DNA from: Phaeobacter italicus
GTDB lineage: Bacteria; Pseudomonadota; Alphaproteobacteria; Rhodobacterales; Rhodobacteraceae
Assembly (NCBI RefSeq): GCF_001258055.1
Contig: NZ_CVRM01000022.1
Span: 62,001-126,000, forward strand
Length of the DNA: 64,000 bases
Direction: 5' to 3'
Part shown: one piece after another, positions 49,663 through 57,629 of the stretch
Layout of the letters: every line of letters starts with the position of its first letter
Position numbering within the stretch: the first letter of the stretch is position 1
The notes under the pieces: generated by a model
Databases searched by the model: none
What the model saw: only the letters and a program-made list of their open reading frames with translations
What the model was told of the DNA's origin: nothing
Program-made: the position numbers and the translations under genes

Positions 49663-52600
49663 TCAGCCCATGCTGACCCTTGCTGCCACGGTCTGGCGAA
49701 CGGGGGCCTGCACTGTCCCAAACCGCCGCAGTTTATGCCAGCCGGTCAACCGACCTGTCAAAATCCGCCACAGCGAACGGTAGACATTGATGATCAGCAA
49801 CTGCCGATAGATCAGCCGGTTGAGCAGCAGCAGGAACACCATTCGGCGAGGCGTGGAGGGTTCGGAGCGAACCGCATAATCGGCCATGATCATTTCCAGC
49901 AGTGGCAAAGCGAGGAAAATTGACAGAACGATATAGTCCCGTGCGGTAAAGGCATCAAAGCTGGTGCCGTCAAAGCTGGTGATGAAGCGCGCCAGCATCA
50001 GAACAAGCAACAGATCGATGATCGGGCCAAGCAGCGGCATGATCACACCAAACAGCACCAGGTCCGTCAGCCCGACAAGCCCGATGGCATGGCCCTTGCG
50101 GATCGTCGCACGGTGTTTCCAGGCTGATTGCAGGATGCCAATGGACCAGCGCATGCGCTGTTTCATCAGCGTGCCAACAGATGCGGGTGCCTCTGTGTAG
50201 GCATAGGCTTTTTCAGCGGCCCGGACGACATAGCCGGCCTCCAGCAGCGAGATGGTAAGATCCGTGTCCTCCGCCAAGGTCTGGCTGGAATAATAGCCGC
50301 ATTCACGAACGGCAGCGGTCCGCCATGCCCCAAAAGCACCGGGGACCACCATGATCGCGTTGATCGTCTCATAGGCGCGACGATCGATATTCTGGGCGAC
50401 GGTGTATTCCAGCTTTTCCAGTTTGGTCAGCAGGTTGTTGGAGTTGCCAACCATGATTTTTCCGGCCACGGCCCCGACCTTTGGGTTGCGAAGCGGTTGC
50501 ATCAGGCGGCGGATTGCGTCAGGCGCGACGATTGTATCCGCATCAATGGCCACAACATAGTCGGTGGTGACATGGGCAAAGGCCAGGTTTGCGGCCTTCC
50601 ACTTGCCGCCGTTTGGCTGGCGCAGGATCTGAACCTTTGGATTGTTCAGATAAGTCTTTGAAACCAGGTCATAGGTTGCATCGGTCGAACCGTCATCGAC
50701 AACCAGAACCGACAGGTTCGGATAATCGGAATCAAGGACGCTGTAGATGGTCTTGAGGATGCTTTTCTCTTCGTTATAGGCGGGAATGACCACTGTCACC
50801 GGTGCGGTGAAATCACCGGTGCGATGGCGGAGATCCGAGCGGGACAGGCGTTTTGAGCGGATCGCCAGCACGAACAGCGTCAGTGCCCGCAATACCCCTA
50901 GAAGCACGGCAAGCGGGACGATGTAGGAAACCCAGGTTGCGCCACTGCCAACCCCGCTGAAGGCAAGGGATTCAAAAGATTCCAGTTGGCTGACCTGGCG
51001 GGTTTCGTAGGGTGTGCCAAAGCTTACCATTGCCTCTTTCAGAGAAATGAACTCGTAGCCGCGCGCCTTCAACTCCGGAATGAGCAGTGCCAGAGCAGCG
51101 ACAGTGTTGCTGCGTTCACCGCCGCCATCATGCAAAAGCAAGACCTGACCGGAACCGTCCAGCTGTTCGATTGTGTAATCGACCAGCTCCCGAGGGCTGA
51201 GGTCACGCCAATCCGGCGGCACGATGTCGGCGCCCAGCAGATGGTAACGCTGATCGATAACGGTCTTCAGGCGGCGGGCCATCTCTCCCTCAAGCGGGCC
51301 GGGACCACGCATGTATGGCGCACGGAACACAACAGGAGTCTTCCCGGTGAGCCAGGAAAACATCCGCGACTGCAAGGCCAGCTCCACCTGAACCCGGTTC
51401 GGTGATGACCGATCCAGCTGCGGGTGGGAAAAGGTGTGCAGGCCAAAGTCATAGTCGTTCTGTGCCATCGCATTCACGACCGACTTATGCTCAAACATCT
51501 GGTTGCCGATCATGAAGAAGGTCGCAGGAACCTCTGCATCCGCCAGGATATCCAGAACGTCCTGGGTGTGCTCTTTGGTGGGGCCATCGTCAAAGGTCAG
51601 CAGAATGCTTTTGTCCGGAAGGGCGCCGTAGCGCTGGCCAATCACCGGGGTCGGCAACGGATCGGTAATCGCCTCTGTCACGCGCAGGGTTTCAGGGTCG
51701 CGGCTGACAGTGCGACGCCCCGGAACCTCTGTCTGGTCGAACCGGATAAACGCGCCTTCACCGCGGTAGGAGACAAAGCTGCCGAGGTCGATTTCCTTCA
51801 GCGATGCAAAGGCGTCCTCAGACAGGATGTCTGCATTCGAGAGCAGCGGCCAGATGGACGGGTCTTCCTGCCCAAGGCCCCAGATCGCGACACCATCGAT
51901 GTTGGCTTCGGACACAGACAACAGTTGGCTGTAGTGGCTGACCGCATCAAGGTACCAGATCATGTTCCGCTCACCCGCGCTGTCCATATAGGAGATCAGC
52001 CCGTGCCCTTTTTCTGGCGAGTAGCCGGCGAAGGCGCGGTATTGATCGGCCTGAGACATGGCGTCTGCGTAGCTGATGAACTCCGGCACCGGTTCTGCCG
52101 TGCTCCAGTGAACGCCACCGGATGCAAGGCCAACAACCAGCTTTTCGGAGGGGATGATATCCTGTGCACGCACCAGCGTTTCTTCGAACCAGTCCAGTGG
52201 CGCAGGGGATTCCTCATAAATGCTGAGACGGAAGCTGTTTTGAACAATGGGAAGGATCACGCGGTCTGGCAGTTCCGCGCTATATGCCAGGGCTTCGATC
52301 TGGTCCGGGGCGACGACGACGCAGTTTTCCAATCCCTTTTGGGTAAAACTGGTCTGCACGCTTTCGATCTCTCCCAGCGCCTTGCGCAGGTTCTCGACTT
52401 CGAGCCGACGCACATCAAAGCAAAGGCCGGACCAACCTTCGGTCACAGCCAGATCTGCCGTCTTGGCCCATAGATCCGGGTTCTGCCCTTCCAGAACGTC
52501 CGCCTGTACGTGGATCAACGGCTGGATCGGATGGCCACCAAAGGGGTTGTTGCGCACAATGTACGGAACGCTCTCACCAGTGTGGCCCGACTGCAGCCAA

Positions 52601-53205
52601 TCGATGCCGTTTTCGCTCAGCATCAGCCATTCGGGAACATAGGTATTGATGGTGTCGCAGGTACGGCTGATCGCGTTGGACACATCCTCAAGGTTGGCCG
52701 CGACAAAGGCGTAGACCTGCGAGGGGTTGCCGCTGGCGGTGCGTGCAGCCATTCCATCACCAGTGCATGCCGCCGCCATTTCGGTCGGTGTGGTGGCGTG
52801 TTGGTGAAGCTGATTGTGACCCAGATGGTCGTGGCCACTGTCGCCATGCAGGCTGTCGTTTTGCGGCAGGAAACGGCGCAAGTCCTGTGAGGCGACTGTT
52901 TTTGCAGGGCTTTCCTGAAACAGCGTGCGTGCAAAGTTGAACTCGGTAATCACATTCTTGGTGACGGCGAAGATCATCGCGAGCGCGAGAGCAACCAGCA
53001 GAACAAAGATCAACACAGCCAGCAGAGGACGGGCAGGACCATCTGCTTTAAAGATTTGCCGCTGCGGATCCGTGGAGTTTGACATCTCGGCTGGGAGAAT
53101 CTCAGTCGGGAATGTCTTGAAACGACGCGGTTTGGGCGCTGCGCGCTTTGCACTGCGTTTGGTGGGCCCTGGCGCCGGCCGGTTTTTGATCGTCGTAGTC
53201 ATCAC
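49663..53205 (-). CDS. GH18-like / NodB polysaccharide deacetylase / family-2 glycosyltransferase fusion protein
   Basis: This 1180-residue inner-membrane protein has, in order: a basic cytoplasmic N-terminus, one membrane helix (60-82) and a periplasmic GH18-like domain (about 160-470, ending GVAIWGLGQEDPSIW). A NodB (CE4) deacetylase domain follows, with its motifs present (TFDDGP 537-542, HTFSH 590-594, RAPY 628-631, DW 665-666, LHDGGG 691). Then come a helix (760-783), a cytoplasmic GT2 domain (VVIPAY 805, DDGSTD 837, DAD 888-890, AED 978-980, QRMRW 1016-1020) and further membrane helices. Together this equals PgaB plus PgaC of poly-N-acetylglucosamine export. In the GH18-like part the usual D-x-E acid is replaced (FDVRR, 263-267), so hydrolysis is doubtful. 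An ATG one codon later is also possible as the start. Confidence 0.92.
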   Translation of the reverse strand: MMTTTIKNRPAPGPTKRSAKRAAPKPRRFKTFPTEILPAEMSNSTDPQRQIFKADGPARPLLAVLIFVLLVALALAMIFAVTKNVITEFNFARTLFQESPAKTVASQDLRRFLPQNDSLHGDSGHDHLGHNQLHQHATTPTEMAAACTGDGMAARTASGNPSQVYAFVAANLEDVSNAISRTCDTINTYVPEWLMLSENGIDWLQSGHTGESVPYIVRNNPFGGHPIQPLIHVQADVLEGQNPDLWAKTADLAVTEGWSGLCFDVRRLEVENLRKALGEIESVQTSFTQKGLENCVVVAPDQIEALAYSAELPDRVILPIVQNSFRLSIYEESPAPLDWFEETLVRAQDIIPSEKLVVGLASGGVHWSTAEPVPEFISYADAMSQADQYRAFAGYSPEKGHGLISYMDSAGERNMIWYLDAVSHYSQLLSVSEANIDGVAIWGLGQEDPSIWPLLSNADILSEDAFASLKEIDLGSFVSYRGEGAFIRFDQTEVPGRRTVSRDPETLRVTEAITDPLPTPVIGQRYGALPDKSILLTFDDGPTKEHTQDVLDILADAEVPATFFMIGNQMFEHKSVVNAMAQNDYDFGLHTFSHPQLDRSSPNRVQVELALQSRMFSWLTGKTPVVFRAPYMRGPGPLEGEMARRLKTVIDQRYHLLGADIVPPDWRDLSPRELVDYTIEQLDGSGQVLLLHDGGGERSNTVAALALLIPELKARGYEFISLKEAMVSFGTPYETRQVSQLESFESLAFSGVGSGATWVSYIVPLAVLLGVLRALTLFVLAIRSKRLSRSDLRHRTGDFTAPVTVVIPAYNEEKSILKTIYSVLDSDYPNLSVLVVDDGSTDATYDLVSKTYLNNPKVQILRQPNGGKWKAANLAFAHVTTDYVVAIDADTIVAPDAIRRLMQPLRNPKVGAVAGKIMVGNSNNLLTKLEKLEYTVAQNIDRRAYETINAIMVVPGAFGAWRTAAVRECGYYSSQTLAEDTDLTISLLEAGYVVRAAEKAYAYTEAPASVGTLMKQRMRWSIGILQSAWKHRATIRKGHAIGLVGLTDLVLFGVIMPLLGPIIDLLLVLMLARFITSFDGTSFDAFTARDYIVLSIFLALPLLEMIMADYAVRSEPSTPRRMVFLLLLNRLIYRQLLIINVYRSLWRILTGRLTGWHKLRRFGTVQAPVRQTVAARVSMG

Positions 53206-53310
53206 TTGCCAACCCGTTGAAAAAACGTGGTAATCAGTCGTTCACAGTTGGGGGGCAGGCGATTTTCGCCATCAAGTGAGGTCAGAACTTTTCGATTCCG
53301 CCATCACTCG

Positions 53311-53333
53311 TTAAGTTTTTAACAAAACCTTAA
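53311..53333. promoter_or_regulatory. CtrA-type box in the divergent exopolysaccharide promoter region
   Basis: TTAACAAAACCTTAAG contains TTAA (53319-53322), seven bases, TTAA (53330-53333), the full CtrA consensus spacing. A further half site TTAA is at 53311-53314. The region of 205 bases separates the fusion gene from the DUF3131 gene, so one site could control both. Confidence 0.55.
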
Positions 53334-53410
53334 GGGTATTTCAAGGTGGGCACCGGTTTGTTGAGAGTTTAGGTTAACACCAGCCGGAACCGGAACATTG
53401 GACAGGGTCG

Positions 53411-55801
53411 ATGCCGTTGAAACGTCGTGAATTTCTGGGTTTGGCTACCTCTGGCCTGATGAGCGCGGCATATCCGTCGTTGGCTCAGACGTCGCGCGTG
53501 GAGGGGATCCGGGCCTTTTCCGTGCTGCTGACCGGTGTGCATCCCTCGCTGCCAGAAAATGCGCTTGGCTCGTTGATTTTTGCGTTTTTGTCCCAAGGGG
53601 TCGCCGTCTCAGTCGAGGTGGATTTCGAGGCCTTTGCGAAACATACGCCGGACGCATTGCACCCGACTTTGGCGATGTTGAATGAAACGTCGGCGCGAAA
53701 CAGGACCTTTGTCGAGATTGTCCCGGCCATGCCCGGCTTGCTGGGGCAGACAGGGTATTTCAAGGCGCGGCACTTGTGGCGGGTTCGTAATCAGATCAAC
53801 CAATTGCTGCCCGGTGCCCTGAGCGAAGCAACCCAGACAGCACATTTTTCGACCGTCTCAACCGGTCTATTGGATGCCGACCTGCGGCAGGACGGGCTGC
53901 GCACTGGTGGCTGCACGACTGTAATTTACGACGCAGTCGATAGCCCCGAACAGGAGGCGCTGCTGGGGCCTGCAGCGGTCTTGATGGTTCCGCTCAAAGC
54001 GCGGCTGGATCTGGCGGATGCGGTTCAGCAGATGACGCCGACACTGTTTGACAGGCTAGGGGACGGCACGGCCTTGGCCATCAATGTCCAGGAGCTGCCG
54101 ATCAATCCGGCCCGGGCCTATGAAATCGGCCAGCGGGTTGCCGCATCGGTTAATCGGGCGCGGTTGTCCAGCTATCTGCTGTCAGTGTTGCCGCGGGAGA
54201 TTTACAAACGTTGTTGTGCCTTCCTGCCCAATCATTCCCGCCATTTCGTCCTTTTGCCTGAGGTGCCGGATGATCGAGCCTCTTATGACCGAATGCTTGG
54301 ACAGGCGCGGGCTCTTCTTGATGTGGACTGCGTCACCCTCGTCAGCGGGGGCGGCACCGGAACGGACGGCGCGCTCTGGGTCCGGACGCGAGACGGCGAA
54401 ACCCATCGGTTGGGGGCGCCGGGCATTGCGCCCGATGGCGTGCCGGTTGAGGGGCCGCTTTTTCTGGCGGACGAGGTTGCCCCGCAACGGGGGGACATCC
54501 GCCACCCGGACGCTGTGTTTCTGCACCGGGCCGAAGCGGCGGGCAAAGTCGCTTCAAAGGTGCCGCCATCAAACGGGATTTGCCTGAACTATCCCGTGAC
54601 AATCGTGGATCCGGCCCATGAGTTGTTTCTGCAGGCGCGTCAGGCGCTCAGCCAGTCGACGCTTGCTTCAGAAAAGGTGCGTTTTGATGACGGGCTGACG
54701 GCAGATGCGGAACTGGCCTATTCGTATCTTGAGCAGGCAGAGATGTCGGCCACTGGGCTCGCGCTCACTGTGCGCAAGCAGATCAACGGCAAGTCGTTCA
54801 ACAATGCCGAAATCACAATGTGGGATGTGGGCAGCCTGATACTGGGGCTTCTGGCTGCGGCTGACCTGGGACTTGTACCAGAACGTGAAGCCTATGCCCG
54901 TATCCGCAAAATCATGCGCAGCTTGCCGGTTATCCAGGACGGAGACCATGCCTATCCCCCGACGCTGATCAATGTGCGGGATGCCTCGATTGAACGGGAC
55001 GGGTTTGATGCATGCGACTTTGGGCGCCTCAGCAGTGCGGTCACGCGTGCCGCACAACGCCCTGACCTGGCCGAGGCGGCAAGCCAGTTGATCGGGAAAT
55101 GGAAGGTTGGAGGCCTCATTCAGGATGGCGCCCTGATCAACATCTTGCAGACCCGGACACAGTCTTCCTACCTGTCGCATTGCGCCCACTACATGGCGCG
55201 GGTGCTGCCAATGCTTGGCTATGCCGAGATGCGTTCGCCTTATCGAGAGGCTTTTGTGGGCGAAACGCTTGCAGATCGAACTGTGAGCCTGCTGTATGCG
55301 GTGGATCAGATCGGGATTTTACCAACAGAACCGTTGCTGCTTGAATACGTCGAGTTGGGGCCCTCTGCAGAATGCTCTGTTTTGAGTGACGTTTTCTTGG
55401 GCGCGATGAAGCACCATTTTGACGAAACAGGCCAAATCCTCGCCCCGTCAGAAACTCCGATCGATACGGCCCCCTGGTTTGTCTACCAGGGCTTCGATCT
55501 GGGGCATGCGACCCGCTGGAATGTCAGCTATCGCCGGGGTCGTGAGGTGTTTTTCGACCCGGTCGAGAGCAGTGAGTTTGGCATCTATTCAACCAAGGCG
55601 GCATATCTCTGGTATGCCGTGCGCCCCTGTGCCTACACCAGACAGATGCTTCAGCTGGCGCAAAACCGTGCCCGCATAGAGGGGTTTGGAATGAGCAGCG
55701 GGCTGTTTCTGGATGGCTATGGTCAGATGCAAAACCATGCTGACCTGAACACAAATGGCATCGTTTTGCAGGCTCTCGCCCATATCAAACGCCGGTCGTG
55801 A
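53411..55801 (+). CDS. Tat-exported DUF3131 domain protein
   Basis: The 796-residue protein begins with a twin-arginine signal (KRREFLGLATSGLMSAAYPS, cleavage near SLA-Q). Residues about 30-430 are not recognised. The C-terminal half matches DUF3131, a family with an alpha/alpha-barrel like glucoamylases: the strings ITMWDVGSLILGLLAAADLG, WFVYQGFDLGHATRW and GIYSTKAAYLWYAVRP are typical. An action on a polysaccharide in the periplasm is inferred. It is divergent from the fusion glycosyltransferase, with a shared CtrA-type promoter region, which supports a joint role in an exopolysaccharide. Confidence 0.85.
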   Translation: MPLKRREFLGLATSGLMSAAYPSLAQTSRVEGIRAFSVLLTGVHPSLPENALGSLIFAFLSQGVAVSVEVDFEAFAKHTPDALHPTLAMLNETSARNRTFVEIVPAMPGLLGQTGYFKARHLWRVRNQINQLLPGALSEATQTAHFSTVSTGLLDADLRQDGLRTGGCTTVIYDAVDSPEQEALLGPAAVLMVPLKARLDLADAVQQMTPTLFDRLGDGTALAINVQELPINPARAYEIGQRVAASVNRARLSSYLLSVLPREIYKRCCAFLPNHSRHFVLLPEVPDDRASYDRMLGQARALLDVDCVTLVSGGGTGTDGALWVRTRDGETHRLGAPGIAPDGVPVEGPLFLADEVAPQRGDIRHPDAVFLHRAEAAGKVASKVPPSNGICLNYPVTIVDPAHELFLQARQALSQSTLASEKVRFDDGLTADAELAYSYLEQAEMSATGLALTVRKQINGKSFNNAEITMWDVGSLILGLLAAADLGLVPEREAYARIRKIMRSLPVIQDGDHAYPPTLINVRDASIERDGFDACDFGRLSSAVTRAAQRPDLAEAASQLIGKWKVGGLIQDGALINILQTRTQSSYLSHCAHYMARVLPMLGYAEMRSPYREAFVGETLADRTVSLLYAVDQIGILPTEPLLLEYVELGPSAECSVLSDVFLGAMKHHFDETGQILAPSETPIDTAPWFVYQGFDLGHATRWNVSYRRGREVFFDPVESSEFGIYSTKAAYLWYAVRPCAYTRQMLQLAQNRARIEGFGMSSGLFLDGYGQMQNHADLNTNGIVLQALAHIKRRS

Positions 55802-55890: not shown

Positions 55891-56511
55891 TTAGCCGACG
55901 GGACCAAATACCTGACAGCCGCTTTCAGAAATCTCGCCACGGGTAACAGGATAACCTCGACGTGGGTTCATTCGGATGGGCTGCATTCCGGTAAGCCGAT
56001 ACATGCACTGCTCGGTCTCGCGAACGCTGCTGTTTTTGCCGCCGATATAGATGTCGAGCCAAGGCCGCCCGTTCTTGCCTGTGTAGCAGGGGCCGTTTTG
56101 GGGCTGATATCCATCCCCGCAGACATCTTCGACGATGGCGTATTTGCGCAGCCGTTCAATGTAAAAACGGGTGCCGGGGGGGAAATCCAGCGTTTGGTGA
56201 CCGCCGCGGATCGCATGGCCCACGGCAATTGTGATCGGATCGTTGTATGTTCCGGTGCCGCCGGCCTGTTGGCGCAGAACGGGGCGGGCGATTGCTGCGC
56301 TTCCCGGTGGTGTGTTGTCCCAGTAACTGTAGCCGGTCAGGTAGCCTTCGAAACGGACTTCCGTGCCTTGCTTCACATAGCGTTTCAGCTGGGCTTTCAT
56401 GTTGTTGTTGATGCTTTGAGCGGGCAACATACCTGCGCAGATGCCTGTGATAGCCAGGGCCGCAGCAGCAATGGTGGATTTGCGGATCAGTGAGTTTTGG
56501 ATCTTCGACAT
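55891..56511 (-). CDS. Secreted protein with 3D/double-psi-barrel-like domain
   Basis: The 206-residue protein has a Sec signal peptide (IRKSTIAAAALAITGICAGM). The mature part has a run (ITIAVGHAIRGGHQTLDFPP, then GTRFYIERLRKYAIVEDVCG and WLDIYIGG) that follows the pattern of 3D or barwin-like double-psi beta barrels, where a P-x-G-T turn and an E-D pair precede an L-D-I/L-Y strand. Four cysteines (in VCGDG, GPCYTG, EQCMYR and SGCQVF) could form disulphides. The start at 56511 follows AAGGAATTGAGC. It converges on the DUF3131 gene. The domain call is from pattern memory and is moderate. Confidence 0.6.
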   Translation of the reverse strand: MSKIQNSLIRKSTIAAAALAITGICAGMLPAQSINNNMKAQLKRYVKQGTEVRFEGYLTGYSYWDNTPPGSAAIARPVLRQQAGGTGTYNDPITIAVGHAIRGGHQTLDFPPGTRFYIERLRKYAIVEDVCGDGYQPQNGPCYTGKNGRPWLDIYIGGKNSSVRETEQCMYRLTGMQPIRMNPRRGYPVTRGEISESGCQVFGPVG

Positions 56512-57629
56512 GCTCAATTCCTTGTCGAGGGCAGCCTCGGGTTGGGGGGCTGACAGCGGGTCAGCGCGCCGTGGACAGGACAGATCCGGACCGGAGCAGA
56601 CCGGCATTCGGATCAGTTGGTTCAAAAGGCCCTGTCAGGCGTCTTATCGCTCTCATCTACGGTTGTTCAGGACGCCCCCCGGGAGCATGTGTCCTGCCAT
56701 CAAAAGGATCTCCGGCCGCTGACCCCTCCGATTGGGGAAAAGCGGGTACACCATGTGCGGGGCCTGACACAAAGCACAGCAGCGTGTCTGGGCAGAAATT
56801 CACCCAGCTATCGGCGGAAATCCGTCAGTTTGGTTTTGCGTGAGAGCTTGATTTTTTGGTCAAACTTATTGTGCGATATTCGAACATCGTCGCCGTCGTC
56901 GGCGAAGGGCGACAAAGATGTCTGCCCCGGCGGCACGGTTGGCAGCCTTCGTGGCCCATAAGAAAATCGCAGCCTGAAACCATCCGCCTTTGCGAACGGG
57001 TGTATGTAGCAACGCACATGCCTGTACGAAATCAGCGCCACCAAGGGGCGCAGCCCCGTTCAGAGGGTGGGTTAATTTTTTGTATCGTTCACAATGCGCT
57101 GATGCAGCGTCCTGTGGCCAACCTATGGCTGGATTACGCGAAATCCCGCGCCTGCAATGGCGAGAACAAGAACTGTTCGACGGCGTCATTCCCACCTCCT
57201 GGTTGCGGGTGTATTGCCAGTGAAGCACCCGTTTTTGGGGGCAATCTCACTGCTCGATGCGGAGAGGTTAGGCTGACAAATCTTAAACCACGTTAAAATG
57301 GAGCGATTCGGATCACTCATAATGAGAGCAATTTGATTCAACGGCAGGTTACCGCCGACAGTTTTACGTCTTTTGGGGTGTTTGTTTGCGAGGCAGAAAC
57401 ATCAGTTGCGCCCTTGGTGGCGACTGCTGCGGTTTCCTAGTCAAACGAATCGAAAATTGCCCGTTCGGTGCCGAATCCCTACACGCTCAGAGTGTTTGAA
57501 CCACGCCGCTACATCTGAGCATCACGCCTAACGGCCGTAGATACGCCGAAAGGAGCAGAAAACCGCCAACCCGGACATCAAATAGGGTTAGATGTGATCT
57601 TAGGCTTTGATTTTTGGGGATTTTTTTAC
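56512..57629. other. Long region without a convincing gene
   Basis: About 1.1 kb between the secreted-protein gene and tRNA-Thr. Open frames up to about 150 codons exist on both strands but have uneven composition and no family match. A minus-strand frame starting at 57189 has a GGAGGTGGG leader and runs about 107 codons, Arg-rich at its end. Small hairpins and TTAA half sites are present. It may hold a decayed gene, a small RNA, or the upstream control region of the secreted-protein gene. Confidence 0.5.

What the first reader, a model, noticed from the sequence alone, without database searches (positions are those of the whole stretch)
49663..55801. Single-chain exopolysaccharide machine (GH18-like + NodB + GT2) paired with a Tat-exported DUF3131 protein
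One 1180-residue protein holds a periplasmic GH18-like domain, a CE4 deacetylase with its catalytic motifs and a cytoplasmic GT2 synthase with D, D, ED and QxxRW motifs: PgaB and PgaC activities on one chain. The divergent gene encodes a twin-arginine-exported 796-residue protein with a C-terminal DUF3131 and a novel 400-residue N-terminal half. No PgaA-like porin or PgaD is seen nearby. This looks like a compact system for making, deacetylating and handling a beta-linked amino sugar polymer, with DUF3131 as the unexplained partner.
Basis: partly seen in the sequence, partly recalled or inferred. Interest (0 to 1): 0.8.

Follow-up and report, generated by a model that had tools for sequence, protein, structure and literature searches.

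The report
Three-gene amino-sugar exopolysaccharide synthase module
A bacterial gene set that probably makes and trims a GlcNAc-type surface polymer pairs a one-chain synthase, whose built-in cutting domain has lost its catalytic motif, with a separate exported protein shaped like sugar-polymer-cutting enzymes, which may have taken over that job.

Summary
Both proteins are real and correctly placed. The 1180-residue chain (49663-53205, -) is GH18-like + CE4 + membrane GT2; 53411-55801 (+) is a DUF3131 protein with a Tat-type signal. They belong together: in 198 family genomes the 14 with the three-domain protein are the same 14 with the long DUF3131 protein, side by side at 15 of 15 loci.

Best reading: a MatB-like poly-GlcNAc synthase-deacetylase whose chain-cutting step moved from its own GH18 domain to a separate periplasmic DUF3131 enzyme. 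The exchange rests on about two independent origins. Polymer, enzyme activity and export route are untested.

The parts
49663..53205 (-). Three-domain polysaccharide synthase, 1180 aa: TM, GH18-like, CE4 deacetylase, TM, GT2, TMs
51646..52758 (-). GH18-like domain (about residues 150-520); catalytic motif absent (GLCFDVR where Bacillus relatives read GINIDFE); Cys262 and Cys295 together in 53 of 55 DUF3131-linked loci and 0 of 44 others
51001..51621 (-). CE4 (NodB homology) domain, about residues 529-735, motifs intact in the window
50140..50802 (-). GT2 catalytic domain, residues 802-1022; best NCBIfam model PgaC/IcaA (156 bits, below its 422-bit cut-off)
53411..55801 (+). DUF3131 protein with a Tat-type signal, 796 aa
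53501..54658 (+). N-terminal half of the DUF3131 protein (about residues 31-416): alternating strands and helices in the model, weak profile similarity to CE4; its profile matches 3 of 385 class genomes, all 3 with the pair
54671..55798 (+). DUF3131 domain (residues 421-796), predicted fold closest to cyclic-glucan-synthase cyclisation domain and beta-1,2-glucanases; conserved acids D536, D622, E640, E648, E681
55891..56625 (-). Third gene (F3): small secreted protein, no Pfam match at 0.001, well conserved beside the pair; a likeness to 3D/double-psi-barrel proteins is by eye and recall only, shown by no tool
53319..53333 (.). CtrA-like palindrome TTAA-N7-TTAA (motif recalled) in the divergent intergenic region, the only perfect one in the window

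Best explanation
This is a compact system that makes and processes a beta-linked amino-sugar (probably GlcNAc-type) exopolysaccharide. Shown by sequence or model: the GT2 domain has its synthase motifs; the CE4 domain on the same chain has intact deacetylase motifs; the GH18-like domain lacks its catalytic motif; a DUF3131 protein with a Tat-type signal and (at most linked loci) a small secreted protein are encoded beside it; DUF3131 is predicted to have the fold of cyclic-glucan-synthase cyclisation domains and beta-1,2-glucanases. Inferred: the GT2 extrudes the polymer through the inner membrane, the CE4 domain removes some acetyl groups in the periplasm, the dead GH18 domain only binds or guides the chain, and DUF3131 cuts or transglycosylates it, the job that the intact GH18 domain would do in relatives without DUF3131. 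The N-terminal half of the DUF3131 protein may dock it on polymer or synthase, and the third protein may help passage through the envelope. The route across the outer membrane is unknown.
Against: The link between GH18-motif loss and DUF3131 is almost wholly one clade plus L144, about two independent events, so the cell counts are not independent. Exceptions: L094 keeps the motif beside DUF3131; L137 and L156 lost it without DUF3131, and their genomes show no DUF3131. The characterised relatives of the fold act on beta-1,2-glucans, not on GlcNAc polymers (PMC12102758 and PMC10834661, passages), and a shared fold shows no activity. Catalytic residues were not superposed, and the sequence match covers only about the first 100 residues of the barrel. 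In one clade (L066-L069) the CE4 motifs are lost while GT2 motifs and DUF3131 stay, so deacetylation is not essential to the pairing. F3 is missing from the stretch held at 18 of 55 linked loci. No outer-membrane exporter was identified.
Confidence: 0.5

Rival explanations
1. DUF3131 is a non-enzymatic scaffold or chain-binding protein; the barrel and the N-terminal half both only bind polymer, and chain length is set by the synthase alone.
For: The GH18-like domain kept much of its conserved sequence after losing its motif, and the partner's N-terminal half may be a deacetylase-like domain without the motifs, so binding-only domains are plausible here.
Against: Acidic residues D536, D622, E640, E648 and E681 are conserved in both long and short DUF3131 sequences, as expected of an active site.
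Confidence: 0.2
2. The polymer is a beta-glucan or mixed glycan rather than a GlcNAc polymer, and DUF3131 works on it as its fold relatives do on beta-1,2-glucan.
For: DUF3131's best structural neighbours are beta-1,2-glucan enzymes; short DUF3131 genes sit with cellulose-synthase-like GT2s and often acyltransferases; one clade lost the CE4 motifs.
Against: CE4 motifs are intact at 51 of 55 DUF3131-linked loci, and the two best GT2 models are for GlcNAc polymers (PgaC/IcaA, NodC), though both far below their cut-offs.
Confidence: 0.2
3. DUF3131 clears stray polymer or acts elsewhere in the envelope and did not replace the GH18 domain; the two changes only share a lineage.
For: About two independent origins and three exceptions.
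Against: Synthase and partner stay adjacent through gene-order changes, with overlapping stop and start codons at several loci.
Confidence: 0.2

Closest known systems
Streptomyces MatB (MatAB, poly-beta-1,6-GlcNAc)
   Same: CE4 and GT2 on one membrane chain, CE4 outside and GT2 inside (PMC5972031, passages)
   Different: No GH18-like domain is described in the passages read; the partner MatA has no known domain there; DUF3131 is not mentioned in them
pgaABCD / icaADBC poly-GlcNAc systems
   Same: Synthase plus deacetylase; GT2 best matched by PgaC/IcaA in NCBIfam
   Different: No PgaD match, no PgaA over cut-off; activities fused on one chain; a GH18-like domain precedes CE4
Unpaired GH18-CE4-GT2 proteins of Bacillus, Acidobacteria and others
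   Same: Same three domains in the same order
   Different: GH18 motif intact in 42 of 44, and no DUF3131 or F3 in the stretches held
[quoted passage not shown]
   Different: 8-14% identity; different genetic setting; activity and catalytic residues not established
Short DUF3131 proteins beside cellulose-synthase-like GT2 (contig C11 of this genome; Klebsiella block 3b, PMC12974863, one passage)
   Same: DUF3131 next to a membrane GT2
   Different: Shorter, 406-584-residue frames without the long N-terminal half; other synthase, acyltransferase and GH16 partners

Membership tests
pgaABCD poly-GlcNAc operon | PgaC-type synthase over the equivalog cut-off | tested here: not met
   TIGR03937 156 bits against cut-off 422
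pgaABCD poly-GlcNAc operon | PgaA outer-membrane porin in the genome | tested here: not met
   best 22.8 bits against cut-off 366.65
pgaABCD poly-GlcNAc operon | PgaD in the genome | tested here: not met
   0 matches at E 1 or better; 7 first-look candidates scored
MatB-type single-chain synthase-deacetylase | CE4 and GT2 motifs on one membrane chain | tested here: met
MatB-type single-chain synthase-deacetylase | poly-beta-1,6-GlcNAc product | not testable with these tools
   needs chemistry or antibody
Active GH18 glycosidase | GxxxDxE catalytic motif (DxxDxDxE type, recalled) | tested here: not met
   GLCFDVR in the window
CE4 deacetylase | TFDDGP, HxxxH and HD motifs | tested here: met
   window, and 51 of 55 DUF3131-linked loci
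[quoted passage not shown]
   sequence support
[quoted passage not shown]
   no residue-level superposition was made; PMC12102758 names these residues (passages)
[quoted passage not shown]
   needs an enzyme assay
Tat substrate | RRx[FLVIM] signal at the N-terminus | tested here: met
   41 of 42 in A3 and 15 of 15 in A2, starts chosen partly by this motif; Pfam TAT_signal at E 1 or better in 9 of 42
NodB-like fold for the N-terminal half | Profile or structural match to CE4 | tested here: inconclusive
   hhalign score 24.2 over 196 columns but own probability only 2.8%; 0 of 60 shuffles as high; z 4.5 against CE4 of loci without DUF3131, z 1.0 against the degenerate CE4 set; PDB sequence search lists no CE4; separate model not finished

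The most novel reading that the evidence does not exclude
DUF3131 defines a new glycosidase or transglycosylase family, related to the beta-1,2-glucanase clan and GH189, that works on a GlcNAc-type polymer. In Rhodobacteraceae and relatives, and separately in a Hyphomicrobiaceae relative, it took over from the GH18 domain built into the synthase, whose active-site strand gained a cysteine in the main clade. Its nearest fold relative is the cyclisation domain of cyclic glucan synthase, so it might close or transfer chains rather than hydrolyse them.
Probability: 0.3. Interest if true: 0.75.

Novelty: new variant of a known kind. Interest (0 to 1): 0.55.

Why it matters
It gives an uncharacterised Pfam family (DUF3131; 3 papers of the held library name it) a fold, a likely role and a linked synthase, and it offers a direct test of whether a secreted enzyme can replace a catalytic domain of a polysaccharide synthase. 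It also points to a surface polymer that searches for the pgaABCD genes would miss, since PgaA and PgaD are absent and the synthase falls below the PgaC cut-off.

Tried and rejected
Considered and rejected: a plain pgaABCD operon; chance neighbours (pair kept in two main gene orders over 55 loci); the three-domain synthase as the novelty (widespread); GH18 as the relative of the N-terminal half (hhalign near shuffle level); further fixed members (58 loci: after the three genes the most frequent families are an ABC-transporter ATPase type in 16 loci and a 173-aa secreted protein in 7; the others listed are in 5 or fewer).

Led nowhere: PDB sequence searches with the N-terminal half and F3; Pfam and NCBIfam for F3; literature on GH18-CE4-GT2 chains: searches found no paper, one search listed five and one (none opened), one search listed one, of which I read passages that do not describe this chain. 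This covers only the held library and those terms. The plain Foldseek search was never accepted, so only the VIA second look was used.

Own errors and limits: the tree held the window twice, once mislabelled as lacking DUF3131, so its counts of changes are inflated by that row; it was not rebuilt, and the clean counts are. In one search control frames were picked wrongly; one search replaced it. Genome searches score only the best few first-look candidates per genome (3, up to 5, up to 14). L114 is counted as DUF3131-linked on a partial N-terminal hit at a contig edge. L098, L099 and L100 have a Glu at the motif column but not the Asp, and count as lost. G013 (GT2-only match) is not counted as a three-domain locus. 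L199's GT2 is a partial piece.

Full report
What is there. Pfam finds CE4 at residues 529-631 and GT2 at 802-1022 of the first and DUF3131 at 432-793 of the second. The GH18-like part is not hit in the window's own protein, but 11 of 32 relatives scanned match Glyco_hydro_18, and the family profile matches solved GH18 proteins such as 3cz8 and 4s3k over that stretch. Hydropathy places one membrane segment before the GH18-like part, one or two between CE4 and GT2, and three after GT2.

Co-occurrence. In 198 genomes of the family, 15 match the long protein at E 1e-60 or better; 14 of these have the full three-domain protein, at 15 loci (one genome has two), and G013 has only the GT2 part. DUF3131 is found in 29 of 198; the long form (frames of 807 residues or more) is in 14, the same 14 genomes, and at all 15 loci it is the neighbour. 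The profile of its N-terminal half matches 3 of 385 genomes drawn from the class, and all 3 have the pair. A third gene, called F3 here (window 55891-56625, minus), matches in 8 of 198 genomes, all 8 among the 14. Other neighbours are far less conserved.

Wider comparison. With the window, 14 family loci and 11 loci from class and phylum samples, less 4 duplicates, this gives 102 distinct loci. DUF3131 lies beside the synthase in 55, is absent from the stretch held in 44, and cannot be judged in 3 at contig ends. Order is divergent in 27, same strand in 26, convergent in 1, and cut by a contig edge in 1. F3 is near 37 of 55 and 0 of 44. The loci without DUF3131 come from Bacillus and relatives, Acidobacteria, Armatimonadetes and other Alphaproteobacteria, among others.

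The GH18 domain. The motif GxxxDxE (GINIDFE in most Bacillus relatives) is kept in 42 of 44 loci without DUF3131 and in 1 of 55 with it. The window reads GLCFDVR. In the linked group two cysteines, Cys262 on the altered strand and Cys295, are both present in 53 of 55 and in 0 of 44 others. The Fisher value of 2e-24 is only descriptive, because on the tree the linked loci are one clade (support 99) plus L144, a Hyphomicrobiaceae sequence whose partner lacks the N-terminal half. Exceptions are L094 (motif kept, DUF3131 present) and L137 and L156 (motif lost, DUF3131 absent). Of 13 whole genomes searched, 11 show no DUF3131; L144's holds exactly one; and G201, whose synthase keeps the motif, has a partial 28-bit hit over Pfam's cut-off in a 2991-residue frame, not beside its synthase.

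The CE4 domain. Its motifs are intact at 51 of 55 linked loci; the four without them, L066-L069, form one clade. All four carry another small protein (F7) and no F3 near by; in one of three F7 proteins scanned Pfam finds a weak transglycosylase match (E 0.047, below its cut-off).

The N-terminal half. It has no Pfam match at 0.001. Against the CE4 profile it scored 24.2 over 196 columns; hhalign itself gives that only 2.8%, but 0 of 60 shuffles scored as high, and z is 4.5 against CE4 domains of loci without DUF3131. GH18, GT2 and glucanase profiles stayed near shuffle level, and so did the degenerate CE4 domains (z 1.0). The model shows alternating strands and helices there. A divergent NodB-like domain is plausible but not shown.

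How it probably works. Synthesis by GT2, partial deacetylation by CE4, chain cutting or transfer by DUF3131 in the periplasm, and help from F3 are inferred from domains and linkage. Streptomyces MatB, a CE4-TM-GT2 chain, is needed for poly-beta-1,6-GlcNAc (PMC5972031, passages), the best precedent. The linkage and sugar of the polymer here are unknown: the best NCBIfam model for the GT2 is PgaC/IcaA, far below its cut-off. No PgaD match and no PgaA over cut-off were found, so export through the outer membrane is open.

Novelty. The three-domain synthase and its chemistry are of a known kind. New here, as far as the searches named in this report go, are the strict link to DUF3131 and F3, the fold of DUF3131, and the match between loss of the GH18 motif and presence of DUF3131. 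I file it as a new variant of a known kind.

Noticed in passing
window 53319-53333: The only perfect TTAA-N7-TTAA (CtrA-like, motif recalled) site in the window lies between the two divergent genes (0.08 expected). A perfect site lies in the 5' region of the synthase at 3 of 54 DUF3131-linked loci; sites with at most one mismatch at 12 of 54 against 2.15 expected from AT-matched stretches, and at 16 of 44 unlinked loci against 15.8.
   Followed up: partly
L004 and L005 (G000 contig C11, 408000-440000): Second DUF3131 cluster in the same genome: two short DUF3131 proteins, a cellulose-synthase-like GT2, GH16, acyltransferase, nucleotidyltransferase, caspase-domain protein and an ABC-type protein.
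   Followed up: partly
L093 and L096: Rhizobiales loci with two three-domain synthase genes in tandem beside one DUF3131 gene.
   Followed up: no
L066-L069: Clade with degenerate CE4 motifs and a different small protein (F7) and no F3 near by.
   Followed up: partly
L057:14261-14782 and six other loci: A 161-199 aa secreted-looking protein family recurs near the synthase in 7 of 58 loci.
   Followed up: no
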